Of a stretch of DNA of 64,000 nt, positions 48,101 through 54,100 are shown piece after piece. Within the stretch, counting starts at the first letter, position 1. Each line of letters opens with the position of its first letter. Made by a program: the position numbers and the translations under genes. Source of the DNA: Owenia fusiformis (Eukaryota; Annelida; Polychaeta; Sabellida; Oweniidae); assembly GCA_903813345.2 (NCBI GenBank), contig CAIIXF020000006.1:25739936-25803935 (forward strand). The letters are read 5' to 3'. The notes below the pieces were generated by a model, which ran no database searches, was not told where the DNA came from, and saw only the letters and a program-made list of their open reading frames with translations.

Positions 48101-51100
48101 GATGGACATTTTAATCATATTTGTGGCGTGTCATGGCTGAGGCATTTTCCCTTAGCTTTTGAACAAACTCTGAGCTATCATCATAAGAGTTTTATATAAT
48201 CTGCTCTCCTTGGTAATGAAACTTTCTCTCGAGATCTGAGAATTAACACCAGGGAAATATTGCACTGAGCAGATCTCTGCCATTTGAACGAAGAGGCACA
48301 TGTTCAAATGGCGAGCAAAATATAATATTCTCCCCAAATAAAAGATTGAAAACTTATTGTTCTATGCTGTGTGTATGTGTACTGTGTAGTCTTTACTCTG
48401 CTGATTTAGTTTCAGTTTTGTCATTTTTCCTAAGATTTGTTTTTAAATTTCTTAAATGTTGTAATTGTTTAAGTGAAAATATGTACTTGGTGTATTTATT
48501 TGTATTTATGTTTGTAGGAAAGTTTCTTTATATTTCATATATCGTTTCTATATTGTATTTGACACTCACTCATACTCATTTAATTGTGTGATATTTGATG
48601 CTCCATTCTTTGCTGTGTTATCATGACACATCATTCAAGTCATGACACATCATTCAAGTCATTACACATCATTCAAGTTATTTGCTATTTACACAATTCA
48701 CTCACTGCTATGTTATTTTCTGGATTGCAGTGACAAGTTTTTGACATACACCAAACCTAAATCAAAACACAATTTCCCCGTCCCAAACATAGACCAAAAC
48801 GGCTGCAATATAGTCTCAAACCAGAATGATTTTGAGCAAATAGAGCTATTTAAGTTAGACCAATCTGTAGTACGAGGGTATGTAATGATAGATAGAAAGG
48901 CGTGTGTTGCCCTTGTTTTGCCATGAGTTCCGCCATTAGTTTGTAGAACAAGAGGTTTCGTTGTTATATATTGCATCGTAATGCAAAGGTACGCTACACA
49001 AATATATGCACTAGTAAGAGACAGGTTCATTACATCAATGAACTCGCATGGCATTATTTTACTGTATAGATATGGACAAAAAGATGGCAGCACAGGTGTT
49101 GGTAGGGCAATAATACTATTGAAGTTCATTTTTAAGGGAAAGTGGGATTCAATTCCTCTTAAGGACATTGAAATATTGAGTTGGTTCCTTATTGCTGTAA
49201 ATATTTGTGTTGCATAGTCCTGCGGATGCTACTTTATGATTATGAGGCTTCTGGTAAATAGATACCACATTGGATTGAGACTATTCCATATTCGCCCCAT
49301 AGTGGAGATTGTTATGAAGCATGGTGCCTGTGCATAGGTATGCATGTGCAATATATAGGCTCTAATATGAAATATTTTTTGTTCTGTTTTCCATATTTGA
49401 TTTTTATACACTCTGGTTAAACATACTTGCAGCTTCACTTTGACTGCAAATTCAATGCTGCAAATGAGCTTGTAAATCTCTGATTATGAATGTGCTCTGT
49501 AATATGACAGTGCTTACCCTACATATGATAGTGCTTCTCTCAAATAAGATAAGATAATGTCACTTGCTAATATTATAATATGTATGTGCTTCTCTCCAAT
49601 TTTGATAGTGCTTCACCCTAATTATGAATGTTCTTCACCCTAATTATGATGGTGTTTCTCCAGTTACAGTGGTGCTTCGCCCAAATTATGAAATGCTTCC
49701 CTGATGTGACATTTCTATTTTTAATAATTCATTATTTTTGTTTGATTCAAGTTATGTTTTTGATTTTATAACAAATTTTTACAAAATCGTGTGTTCATGT
49801 GTGTGACCTCTAATTGTGCATCCTCAATTGTTCGTAAATGTCTCGTATTTTAAAATATGTGTTAAACGATTGAATCAGAATAATTCATATTTTAGAGTGA
49901 ATCATATAGCCATAATAGTCATGCATAGTAACTTTTATCAATGTAGAATTTAGACTTTCACATGTTTGACAAATCCTAGTTATGGTACTCAGATGATAAT
50001 GTATGTTGACAGATGAAGTTGCAGATTTTCCAATGTGTAACCTGAAAGTGTTTACAGTATGGAGCCAGATATGATATTTATCCTTGTATTTCTAATACAT
50101 GTTATAAGCTAGGGTTTTAGGCCTGTGGACATTTTTATCCTCTCGTTTTTAGGATTCAATTTGAGGATTTTTGTTTTGCGTATTTATGATAGAGGATAAA
50201 TATCATACTTTTGTTGATACACATGTGAAATTAGCCTGAGGCCCATTTCTCAAAAACGTTATGAAGTATGATTTCTGAAATTTAATAGTCCTTCATGATA
50301 TTACTTATATAGATCATAAAGACTGTTGAAATGGAATTATGAACTCTGGTGTTTTTGAAAAATGGCTTCTTGCACATTTTCTTGCTTTTTGAGATCATCC
50401 TCCAAATGCAAGTTTCAAACATTTGAATAAGATCTCTGCTTGGAGAATGCATATTAGACCTTACATATGTCTCTTAGTGACACTCTTCATGTTGTTTTTG
50501 CAGAAATCGCGGTGGAGGTATTCCACAACCTAAAAAGCGAACTGGTGAATTCCAGTTAGAGCTGGATGAACCTGACCGCTCCCAGATCCAGATGCCTGAA
50601 CTAGTCGAGCATGATATTGATGAAATCCTCAACGATACTGTACATTTACCTGAACGAAAGTATGTTGACTGTTGATTATTACATTTACATATGGGAGTAA
50701 ATAAACTCCACTTTTGTTAAGGAAAAAGAAAGCCATAAATAAATGATGATTATGATGTCATTTTAATATCAAAAAGGTTTTACTAAGATGGATAGAAATA
50801 CTACTTTAATTTTTTTTACTTTGCTTGGGGCCTTTAATATAATATTATATAACTCTTTGCTACAGATCTCGACCCCCCTCCCCCAGTTCTAAGCTACTAG
50901 GCAGGCCCAGTGGTAACAATGTGGATGCAGCATCTGCCATCAACCTGGTTGTCTCCCAGGTAGCAAGCCATGACATCACTTCCAGTATTCAAGCCCTCGC
51001 ACAGGTAAGCCATGACATCACTTTTAATATTCAAGCCCTAGCACAGGTAAGCCATGACATCACTTCCAGTATTCAAGCCCTCGCACAGGTAAGCCATGAC

Positions 51101-54100
51101 ATCACTTCTAGTATTCAAGCCATCACACAGGAAAGCCATGACATCACTTTTAATATTCAAGCCCTAGCACAGGTAAGCCATGACATCACTTCCAGTATTC
51201 AAGCCCTCACACAGGTAAGCCATGACATCACTTTTAGTATTCAAGCCCTCGCACAGTTAAGCCATGACATTACTTCTAGTATTCAAGCCCTCACACAGGT
51301 AAGCCATGACATCACTTCCAGTATTCAAGCCCTCGCACAGGTAAACCATGACATCACTTCCAGTATTCAAGCCCTCGCACAGGTAAACCATGACATCACT
51401 TCCAGTATTCAAGTCCTCACACAGGTAAGCCATGACATCACTTCCAGTATTCAAGCCCTCGCACAGGTAAACCATGACATCACTTCCAGTATTTAAGCCC
51501 TTGCATAGGAAAGCCATGACATCAATTCTAGTATTCAAGTTCTTGTACAGGAAAGCCATGATGTCACTTCCAGTATTGTATTTTATGTATTTACATTATA
51601 CTTCATTGTGCATTCATTGTGAGAATACTAAACAAGATTTTCTTTTCTCATATCTAGATTGATGAAGTGCTGAAGGATGACGTGAAGTCAGAGTTGCTAG
51701 TGAGCCACATGGACCAACTGTTATTGATGTGCTCCATCAAGCTGAAAATGATCTACACGAAGCATATGGGAGAGGAGCAGACATCCAAAGAGGACATGTT
51801 GAGCTTGTATAGATGTCTGCTAGCCACTATGTTAGAGGTAGGGTGAATATATTTGCTTTTTAGCTCACACAGTGAGCCTATGGGATTGACCAGGCATCCG
51901 TCCGTCCGTTGGTTTTTCTTATTTTACATATTTGTTATGTTAAAACCACTATAAATCATTATACTGTAAGATAATGTAATGAAAACATAGACGAATAAAA
52001 CACTTAATAATAAGAGCAACCAGATGAAGCATACTGTATTGTAAAAAATCTGAAAATCACATTCCACCTTTTTGAAAGTCATTTTGCATCATGCCGAAAG
52101 GGTGAAGTTTTGAGATATTTGACCAAAAGGGGTAATACTCCTTCAGCAAAGCTGGTATCTGATCAAAACACCTAGATTAGAATTGATTTCAGATCCTTCT
52201 AGGGTACCCCAAGATATGCAGTATGAATCTGTGTGTTTTGGTCAAATACCAGCTTGACTGAAAGAATATAACAAGGATTGAGCACACTCAAAAAAAATCC
52301 TGGGAAGATGTGTAAAAAATCCTGATGAATAAAAAATCTTATTTTTAGTTATTTAAACATAACAGTCTGGCAAAGGAGGCTACCAGTGGAGTGTTAAAGG
52401 ATCTTGTCTATCATTTAATTACAATCCTATTGGACACACGGCTCACAAGTCTCGATGATGGGCCACAGGTTGTGAGATCTGTTAACGTTATGGTGGTTAA
52501 GATAGTGGAGAGGTCAAACCCGACAGAAATTATGACGTAAGTAGAAAGGTTTTGCTTGTGGTAGTTGTTGTATCACTATTTCTTCAGTGTACAGGGTTTT
52601 CCGAAAGCATGGGACCCACCTAGGCAGACATATACAAGTGTCTCTACAGTATGTATGTATCATGTATCACTTTAAACAGTCGAAATGTTGATACATGCGC
52701 AGACCTCTATTTAGTGATATTTTCATTTCAAATATGGCGGCCAATCTGATGTCTGACGGCCCTTACAAAGAATCTAGGCAGTTTGCATTTTTACCTCCTG
52801 TGAAATAACAAGTGGAATTTAGTAGTTGTTTTGTGTTTTATTATCATTCTGCATCGTAATTCTATGTGATGTGGTGTTGAAATGTCAGCAGAAATACATA
52901 TCCATACGATAATCGAGTGAATCAGATAACAGATTTTTCGAAAACCCGTCTCGTGCTAAGAGTGTAAAAACTTGTATTAACATGCTCAAAAGTGCCAATG
53001 TGCACATCAATGTCAAGCTAAATCAATGTTGTGTCTAAAACAGGTACCTGATCTACTCAAAACAGCTTGTCATTCACGTGTACACGCTTAGCAAACACGG
53101 CGAAATGACCTCAATCTTGGAATTTCGTTCAAGAGCTAGTAATGTTTGCTCCGGTCTTCGTCATAAGTGTTCATCAGACTTCACGCATGCGCAGGAGAAA
53201 AACCATCAACCAATAACGTTTATAAATCAATTTTGCGCATGCGCCTTACAACGGTAAAGAAATTCGTATTTATAAACGAACCAGTTTGAGATAACCCGAT
53301 ATCAGTCGGAGAAATCTGACGATCTACGAAACTCACTTCAAAAAATCAAATGCGGACTGACGGCGTATTCTACTATGTTTGGATCTAAGATTTTCAGTAT
53401 AGATAAAGTCTTTTATGATCTTTCGAATGAGGTAAGTCTCTAGTTCGAAAGACAATCGTATCAACTTGAACAAAAGTTGAGTTTTGACGAAAAATTTTAA
53501 CATGCGCAGAAGTCCCATTTTCGTTGTACCATATTGACTGTAAATCTCCAAAGTTACATTGATTTGCCAAGTATCGTGGTTCACCTCACAAATGGGAAAA
53601 GTTAAGGTATTTCAATATTTAGTGTTCTGCCAAAATTGAGGTGCAGTCTGATGGAAAAGGAACATATATTTAAAAATATGAATCATGTTAGATACATGTA
53701 TCTTTAATTTTTAACGTTACTACTGTAGTTTAAAAGATAAGTGTACCCATTTTCATCAAAGATTTGATATCAGGATTTATTTTTATTTCAGTGCTTTAAT
53801 TCGCCTCCTTCACGAATGCATCGCCAGTGAAACTTGCTCACCTAAATTTATGGAACTGATCCTAAAATGCTTATGGAAAACTGCACGCATGTTACCAAAT
53901 ATGGTCAATGAATTAGACTTAGACTCAGTATTGTTGGAATTACATAACTTCCTTAAAGCGTATCCCTCCCACACTTGGAAAGACATGCCCAGCGATACAC
54001 CCCTGAGGACGATAAAGACTATATTACATTCCCTGGCTAAAGCCACTGGCCCAAAAGTAAGTGTTAGCATAAAGCCTCATTCACATTTGTTCTACCATGG

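What the first reader, a model, noticed from the sequence alone, without database searches (positions are those of the whole stretch)
50962..51580. In-frame splice-donor ladder: an exon end plus its donor repeated 14 times at an exact 42-bp period in CKAP5
Seen directly: 14 unit ends spaced 42 bp apart, ten keeping GT at the donor position (seven GTAAGC, three GTAAAC). The exon ends in phase 0 and exon 32 starts in phase 0, and 42 is divisible by three. Choosing the donor at 51004, 51046, 51088, 51172, 51214, 51298, 51340, 51382, 51424 or 51466 would add 0, 14, 28, 56, 70, 98, 112, 126, 140 or 154 residues, in steps of a helix reading [13 protein letters not shown] at the start of the last TOG-like domain. 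The frame stays open through every usable donor and closes by TAA only after the last one. That suggests either selection for coding or recent expansion. Such a DNA-length-encoded, splice-selected helix counter in a microtubule polymerase is, to my knowledge, undescribed.
Basis: partly seen in the sequence, partly recalled or inferred. Interest (0 to 1): 0.92.

Follow-up and report, generated by a model that had tools for sequence, protein, structure and literature searches.

The report
Repeated splice donors in worm CKAP5
In a marine worm's microtubule-polymerase gene, the last 40 bases of one exon and its splice signal are present in about 14 tandem copies, giving ten in-frame places where that exon could end; the deposited protein uses only the first, and the copies look like a mostly silent DNA repeat rather than a proven protein-length dial.

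Summary
A 42-bp array (50965-51577, 14.6 copies, no indels) starts inside exon 30 of 39 of the CKAP5 orthologue of the annelid Owenia fusiformis and runs into the next intron. Ten of 14 unit ends keep GT (seven GTAAGC, three GTAAAC), all in phase 0, and the frame closes only at TAA 51494-51496. My spliced model is identical to the deposited 1984-aa protein, which joins 51004 to 51658 with no extra unit. Protein homologues show no insertion at this junction (118 of 119 aligned, the Owenia protein included). Four short ORFs from unnamed sources carry the same exon end and no array; three of them run on into an apparent intron. The array is best read as a derived minisatellite born by tandem duplication across an existing exon end. 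Selection is not needed: a period divisible by three is a 1-in-3 event, the open frame is inherited from the exon, unit changes are 8 non-synonymous to 3 synonymous, and GT is no better kept than other positions. Published competition experiments mostly predict use of the first donor. A close precedent exists, the ABCA7 intron-18 VNTR; the in-frame, exon-derived form is what is new. Regulated use stays possible but unshown.

The parts
50866..51004 (+). CKAP5 exon 30 of 39; its last 40 bases (50965-51004) are the first copy of the repeat
   Evidence: Spliced model identical to deposited Owenia fusiformis protein P0001
50965..51577 (+). 42-bp minisatellite, 14.6 copies; unit = 40 exonic bases + GT; last copy partial
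   Evidence: Tandem Repeats Finder; unit comparison
51005..51010 (+). Native donor CAG|GTAAGC, the only one represented in the deposited protein; its +3 to +6 bases are those of the second copy of the repeat
51047..51472 (+). Nine further potential donors after 51046, 51088, 51172, 51214, 51298, 51424 (GTAAGC) and 51340, 51382, 51466 (GTAAAC); use not shown
51131..51556 (+). Four unit ends without GT (after 51130 GA, 51256 TT, 51508 GA, 51550 GA)
51494..51496 (+). TAA that ends the frame read on from exon 30, just past the last potential donor
51005..51657 (+). Intron 30 as spliced in the deposited protein (653 bases); the intron before exon 30 is 206 bases
51658..51837 (+). CKAP5 exon 31 (IDEVLKDD...), second half of helix B of the first hairpin of TOG6
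   Evidence: helix placed by the model of homologue P0065
29850..63094 (+). Whole CKAP5 orthologue, 39 exons, 1984 aa
   Evidence: translation identical to P0001

Best explanation
A minisatellite that grew across an existing exon-intron boundary. Shown: the array, its position, a deposited protein that uses only the first donor, and protein homologues without inserted units. Inferred: a tandem duplication joined the first two intron bases (GT) to a point inside the exon (AAGCC, 50965), perhaps helped by short homology (exon CAGGTAGCAAGCC, donor side CAGGTAAGCC), making a 42-bp unit of 40 exon bases plus GT. Unequal exchange or slippage then multiplied it. Each copy carries a donor and an open frame by descent. 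The spliceosome normally takes the 51004 donor, so the later copies are removed as intron; rare transcripts with 14n extra residues may occur as noise.
For: The deposited protein is identical over 1984 aa to the model with 51004|51658. The published Owenia gene set was built on RNA-seq junctions, 31,678 of 31,903 transcripts having RNA-seq support (PMC9977687 passages); that P0001 belongs to it is inferred. 118 of 119 proteins aligned across the junction, P0001 included, have no inserted residue. ORFs P0121, P0122 and P0124 from unnamed sources leave homology after the same exon end (ALAQ|VSS, ALAQ|VST, ALTQ|VN); P0121 resumes at IDDVL after 36 residues, so an intron of ordinary kind without the array lies there. 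Units show no sign of coding or donor selection. Crossing a splice boundary is not rare by chance: 2 of 22 arrays in the gene do so, 5.0 expected from random placement that ignores selection. A second array, period 35, crosses the acceptor of exon 18. In five minigenes with two identical donors and 365-base flanking introns the upstream donor was used exclusively, and among near-equal natural pairs upstream preference is heightened for a short upstream plus long downstream intron, the arrangement here: 206 and 653 bases (PMC9225289).
Against: The downstream donors are not weak: GTAAGC pairs with U1 at -11.0 kcal/mol, better than all 37 other donors of the gene (best -10.1); a position matrix trained on 35 of those 37 ranks it low, 31 of 35 scoring at least as high. 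Proximity to the acceptor alone does not explain the choice: a donor-like site still further upstream in the exon, after 50959 (CAG|GTAGCA), outscores 51004 on that matrix (6.23 against 4.77), though it pairs less well with U1 (-7.7). Classical experiments of Reed and Maniatis, as told in PMC9225289, favoured the downstream donor, and the overall upstream preference in that paper's near-equal pairs is only 60%. A one-unit-longer transcript does occur in ABCA7, at about 2% in the presence of decay. Short-read annotation can miss repeat-containing isoforms. The competition data are not from annelids. P0123 has no intron at this place, so the intron is not universal. Absence of the array in other genomes rests on four ORFs only.
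Confidence: 0.83

Rival explanations
1. Regulated in-frame length series: the cell chooses among the ten donors and makes CKAP5 proteins with 0-154 extra residues in steps of 14, lengthening the first HEAT hairpin of TOG6.
For: Ten donors in one phase, frame open to the last of them; seven of them pair with U1 better than any other donor of the gene; 14 residues is two heptads, nearly whole helical turns; AlphaFold2 on the array ORF alone gives one helix, residues 17-208, mean pLDDT 89.7; the usual unit next to exon 31 rebuilds the native helix sequence.
Against: Deposited protein uses only 51004; 0 of 124 proteins returned by the two searches and checked holds the unit core SIQAL twice (26 of the 146 hits were not listed); no coding or donor selection; the insertion would fall inside helix B of a folded TOG6 hairpin; a single-sequence model of a near-perfect repeat is weak evidence.
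Confidence: 0.07
2. The repeated GT sites work as a U1 snRNP landing array that strengthens recognition of the exon or keeps polyadenylation off the intron, without being spliced.
For: Seven sites pair with U1 better than any other donor in the gene; U1 protection from premature polyadenylation is known (recalled, from no call).
Against: GT is no better kept than neighbouring bases; the unnamed ORFs P0121-P0124 show the exon end without the array; nothing here tests it directly.
Confidence: 0.05
3. Assembly error created or inflated the array.
For: Near-perfect tandem copies are where assemblers slip; copy number is the least certain figure.
Against: Units differ from each other by 3.3-4.2 bases on average, with no indel, so it is not one sequence copied by mistake. 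The published assembly used PacBio reads of 25.75-30.75 kb N50 plus Illumina polishing (PMC9977687 passages); that this window is from that assembly is inferred from the protein match.
Confidence: 0.04

Closest known systems
ABCA7 intron-18 VNTR (human; PMC5954066)
   Same: Tandem repeat that begins at an exon end; its first two bases are the exon's GT donor; a transcript with exactly one retained unit is documented
   Different: 25-bp unit, so inclusion shifts the frame and gives a stop; that repeat starts with the intron's first base, whereas here 40 of 42 bases are copied exon and the frame stays open
[quoted passage not shown] ATP2A1; fission-yeast 24-bp copies; potato RdRp; as told in PMC4974935)
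   Same: Tandem duplication multiplies AG|GT sites; the potato case also crosses an intron-exon boundary; the yeast case has several short exonic copies
   Different: There a new intron arises; here an existing intron is kept and its donor multiplied
Competing alternative 5' splice sites (PMC9225289)
   Same: Identical CAG|GT donors compete for one exon
   Different: Designed pairs or natural pairs, not ten at a fixed period

Membership tests
CKAP5/XMAP215 orthologue | Full-length collinear similarity including the TOG6 region and C-terminal part | tested here: met
   39-exon model identical to deposited Owenia protein; CKAP5-named homologues match over residues 1400-1720, e.g. Haliotis 55%, Lingula 54%, Strongylocentrotus 46% identity
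Splice-donor-bearing VNTR (ABCA7 kind) | Tandem array that includes an exon's donor | tested here: met
   Array 50965-51577 contains the donor at 51005
Splice-donor-bearing VNTR (ABCA7 kind) | Copy number varies between individuals | not testable with these tools
   One assembly only
Splice-donor-bearing VNTR (ABCA7 kind) | Transcripts that retain a unit exist | tested here: inconclusive
   None among the 124 returned proteins checked; no RNA reads on hand
Intron gain by tandem duplication | New intron absent from relatives | tested here: not met
   P0121 shows an intron-like gap exactly at this place, P0122 and P0124 leave homology there; P0123 has no intron there
Functional alternative 5' splice-site series | More than one donor used in mRNA | tested here: inconclusive
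   Deposited protein uses 51004 only; no RNA reads on hand

The most novel reading that the evidence does not exclude
The array is a repeat-length-encoded, splice-selected protein ruler: natural alleles differ in unit number, and splicing adds 14-residue, heptad-sized steps to the first helical hairpin of TOG6 in a microtubule polymerase, some of them used in particular tissues or stages.
Probability: 0.06. Interest if true: 0.78.

Novelty: new variant of a known kind. Interest (0 to 1): 0.36.

Why it matters
It is a clean natural test of how a spliceosome chooses among ten nearly identical donors at a fixed spacing, and of how a minisatellite can take in an exon end without breaking the gene. 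If some copies are used, copy-number change would directly change protein length in 14-residue steps.

Tried and rejected
Selection on the reading frame: rejected as unnecessary. Special retention of GT: not seen, 4 of 28 against 31 of 520 changed, Fisher P 0.095 in the opposite direction; the 28 include the native donor. Array-bearing proteins in the databases: none seen. The full-length search covered residues 1400-1720 (146 hits, 120 listed); the array-ORF search scored only the 7990 candidates sharing most words and gave 4 hits; 0 of these 124 proteins holds SIQAL twice. The P0001 cluster holds 2 sequences and only the representative could be read. PDB search of the TOG6 region by sequence: 0 matches at E 0.001. 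Rfam on the window at gathering scores: 0. The third protein search was not used. The intron-gain reading was dropped because P0121 shows an intron at the same place. A deletion explanation for the partial last copy (GTATT shared by unit and intron) was considered and left open. In one search, 1 of 120 listed proteins did not align across the junction, and P0114 aligned poorly (score 50, apparent 6-residue gap), so it is not counted as an insertion; P0001 itself is among the 118. A simple 'nearest to the acceptor wins' rule is not enough, because of the exonic donor-like site after 50959.

Literature: nine answered searches. The statement that no in-frame exon-derived donor array was found rests on the listings, in an open-licence library only.
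Full report
What is there. Tandem Repeats Finder reports one array at 50965-51577, period 42, 14.6 copies, 90% matches, no indels. In the register of the exon end, units finish at 51004 + 42k for k = 0-13. 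Ten of the 14 are followed by GT: seven GTAAGC (51004, 51046, 51088, 51172, 51214, 51298, 51424) and three GTAAAC (51340, 51382, 51466). Four are not (51130, 51508, 51550 GA; 51256 TT). The frame from 50867 stays open to TAA at 51494-51496.

The gene and organism. Stitching GT-AG exons by homology gave a 37-exon model. A search with residues 1400-1720 returned a deposited Owenia fusiformis protein, P0001, 1984 aa, 100% identical over that region. It showed two short exons that I had missed (38953-39042 and 60370-60393); with them the 39-exon translation is identical to P0001. The array exon is exon 30 (139 bases), the intron after it is 653 bases and the one before it 206 bases. P0001 joins 51004 to 51658 and contains no extra unit. 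The published Owenia gene set was built from RNA-seq splice junctions, with RNA-seq support for 31,678 of 31,903 transcripts (PMC9977687, passages seen). That P0001 comes from this gene set is inferred from species and sequence. The cluster of P0001 holds a second sequence that could not be read.

Age. Of the 120 listed proteins, 119 aligned across the Q|I junction and 118, P0001 included, have no residue inserted there; the exception, P0114, is a poor alignment (score 50). This says nothing about introns of those species. A search with the array ORF found four short predicted proteins from unnamed sources. P0121 runs ...[13 protein letters not shown]... and resumes at IDDVLKD after 36 residues, as expected for a read-through intron at the same place. 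P0122 and P0124 also leave homology there, while P0123 reads ALAQIDEV without a gap. So the boundary is older than the array, and these four sequences lack the array; that is all the comparative DNA-level evidence there is. The array cannot be dated, but units 2, 8 and 11 are identical to the unit consensus and differ at one base from the exon copy.

How it arose (inferred). The unit AAGCC...CACAGGT consists of the last 40 bases of the exon plus the first two of the intron. The exon has CAGGTAGCAAGCC at 50957-50969 and the donor side has CAGGTAAGCC, so short homology could have helped the first duplication. One result is that the native donor's +3 to +6 bases now belong to copy 2. The period is a multiple of three with prior chance 1/3, and 29 of 38 introns of the gene are phase 0, so phase is unremarkable. 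Once the period is a multiple of three, an open frame follows from the exon. Units 1-11 show 11 distinct changes, 8 non-synonymous and 3 synonymous; random change predicts 69-76% non-synonymous and a 0.70-0.84 chance of no stop. GT bases changed at 4 of 28, other bases at 31 of 520. Nothing points to selection for coding or for donors.

Is a repeat across a splice site unusual? In this gene 22 distinct arrays (27 Tandem Repeats Finder rows, overlapping ones merged) were counted and 2 cross a splice boundary; random placement of the same arrays, ignoring selection on exons, gives 5.0 on average. The second one, 35 bp at 41313-41401, crosses the acceptor of exon 18, and its period is not a multiple of three.

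Donor strength and choice. Folding against the U1 5' end gives -11.0 kcal/mol for GTAAGC and -8.3 for GTAAAC, against a best of -10.1 and a median of -5.9 among the gene's 37 other donors. A matrix trained on 35 of those 37 ranks GTAAGC lower: 31 of 35 score at least as high, which I attribute to its C at +6. The two measures disagree, but by either the seven GTAAGC copies are equal. With equal donors, position should decide. In five minigenes with two identical CAG|guaagu donors and 365-base flanking introns, the upstream one was used exclusively. Among near-equal natural pairs the upstream donor is preferred in 60% overall, and that preference is heightened for a short upstream and long downstream intron, which is the arrangement here (PMC9225289, sections 6 and 8 read). 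So the expectation is that 51004 is used and the other copies are removed with the intron. Against this: the classical Reed and Maniatis experiments, as told there, favoured the downstream donor. The last two donors would leave introns of only 191-233 bases, below the about 250 bases where that paper puts the change of mode. And a donor-like site further upstream in exon 30, after 50959, scores above 51004 on the matrix (6.23 against 4.77) but pairs less well with U1 (-7.7) and is not used in P0001, so nearness alone does not settle the choice. The source organism of the paper's data was not checked; it is not an annelid study.

What inclusion would do. In a model of a homologue (P0065, 30-row alignment, block pLDDT 87-92 there), the junction lies inside helix B (residues 636-651) of the first hairpin of the TOG6 region. 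In human ch-TOG, TOG6 is residues 1517-1802 (PMC11921806 passages). Each inclusion would put 14 residues between the hairpin's first helix and a rebuilt second helix. The array ORF alone is modelled as one long helix (residues 17-208, mean pLDDT 89.7, pTM 0.48); a single-sequence model of a near-perfect repeat is weak evidence. Fourteen residues are two heptads, so a helix could in principle take up units with little rotation.

Compared with what is known. The human ABCA7 intron-18 VNTR (25 bp) starts at exon 18, its first two bases are the donor, and a transcript retaining one unit makes up about 2%, in cells where decay of such transcripts is active; VNTR length did not change its share (PMC5954066, passages and section 21 seen). 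The idea of a repeated donor at an exon end is therefore not new. What differs here is that 40 of 42 bases are copied exon, the period keeps the frame, and ten donors stay in one open frame. Tandem duplication of AGGT segments as a route to new introns is also known, including several 24-bp copies in fission yeast (PMC4974935, abstract and Introduction read), but here no new intron was made.

Verdict. A real, tidy and instructive minisatellite at a splice donor, most likely silent or nearly so, confidence 0.83. The regulated reading is left at about 0.06-0.07. Whether the array occurs elsewhere in the genome could not be tested, because the genome search did not complete in ten tries (listed under steps to tell).

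Noticed in passing
window 41313-41401: 35-bp repeat, 2.5 copies, crossing the acceptor of CKAP5 exon 18 (starts 41388); the upstream copies read AAG|GTGAAAG, so it is an acceptor-side counterpart of the donor array, with a period that is not a multiple of three.
   Followed up: partly
window 36972-37142 and 38199-38385: Two 16-bp minisatellites (GACAACTCATCCCCTA and GATGAGTTGTCCAGGG) whose units are near reverse complements by eye, in the same CKAP5 intron (36727-38539), about 1 kb apart; could form a long intronic hairpin.
   Followed up: no
window 57751-59637, minus strand: 628-aa uninterrupted ORF with a Glyco_transf_49 match (E 4.1e-45), nested on the opposite strand inside a CKAP5 intron (56355-60369).
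   Followed up: partly
window 56688-57578: 86-bp array, 10.4 copies, 95% matches, in the same intron beside the nested ORF.
   Followed up: no
window 9480-12912: ORFs that look like a non-LTR retrotransposon: 770 aa with endonuclease and reverse transcriptase matches, preceded by a 381-aa ORF without a Pfam match.
   Followed up: partly
window 60370-60393: 24-base microexon (FEEEDPEI) in CKAP5, present in the deposited protein.
   Followed up: yes
window 50957-50965: Donor-like CAG|GTAGCA inside exon 30, 45 bases before the native donor and in the same phase; scores above it on the gene's own donor matrix but below it on U1 pairing.
   Followed up: partly
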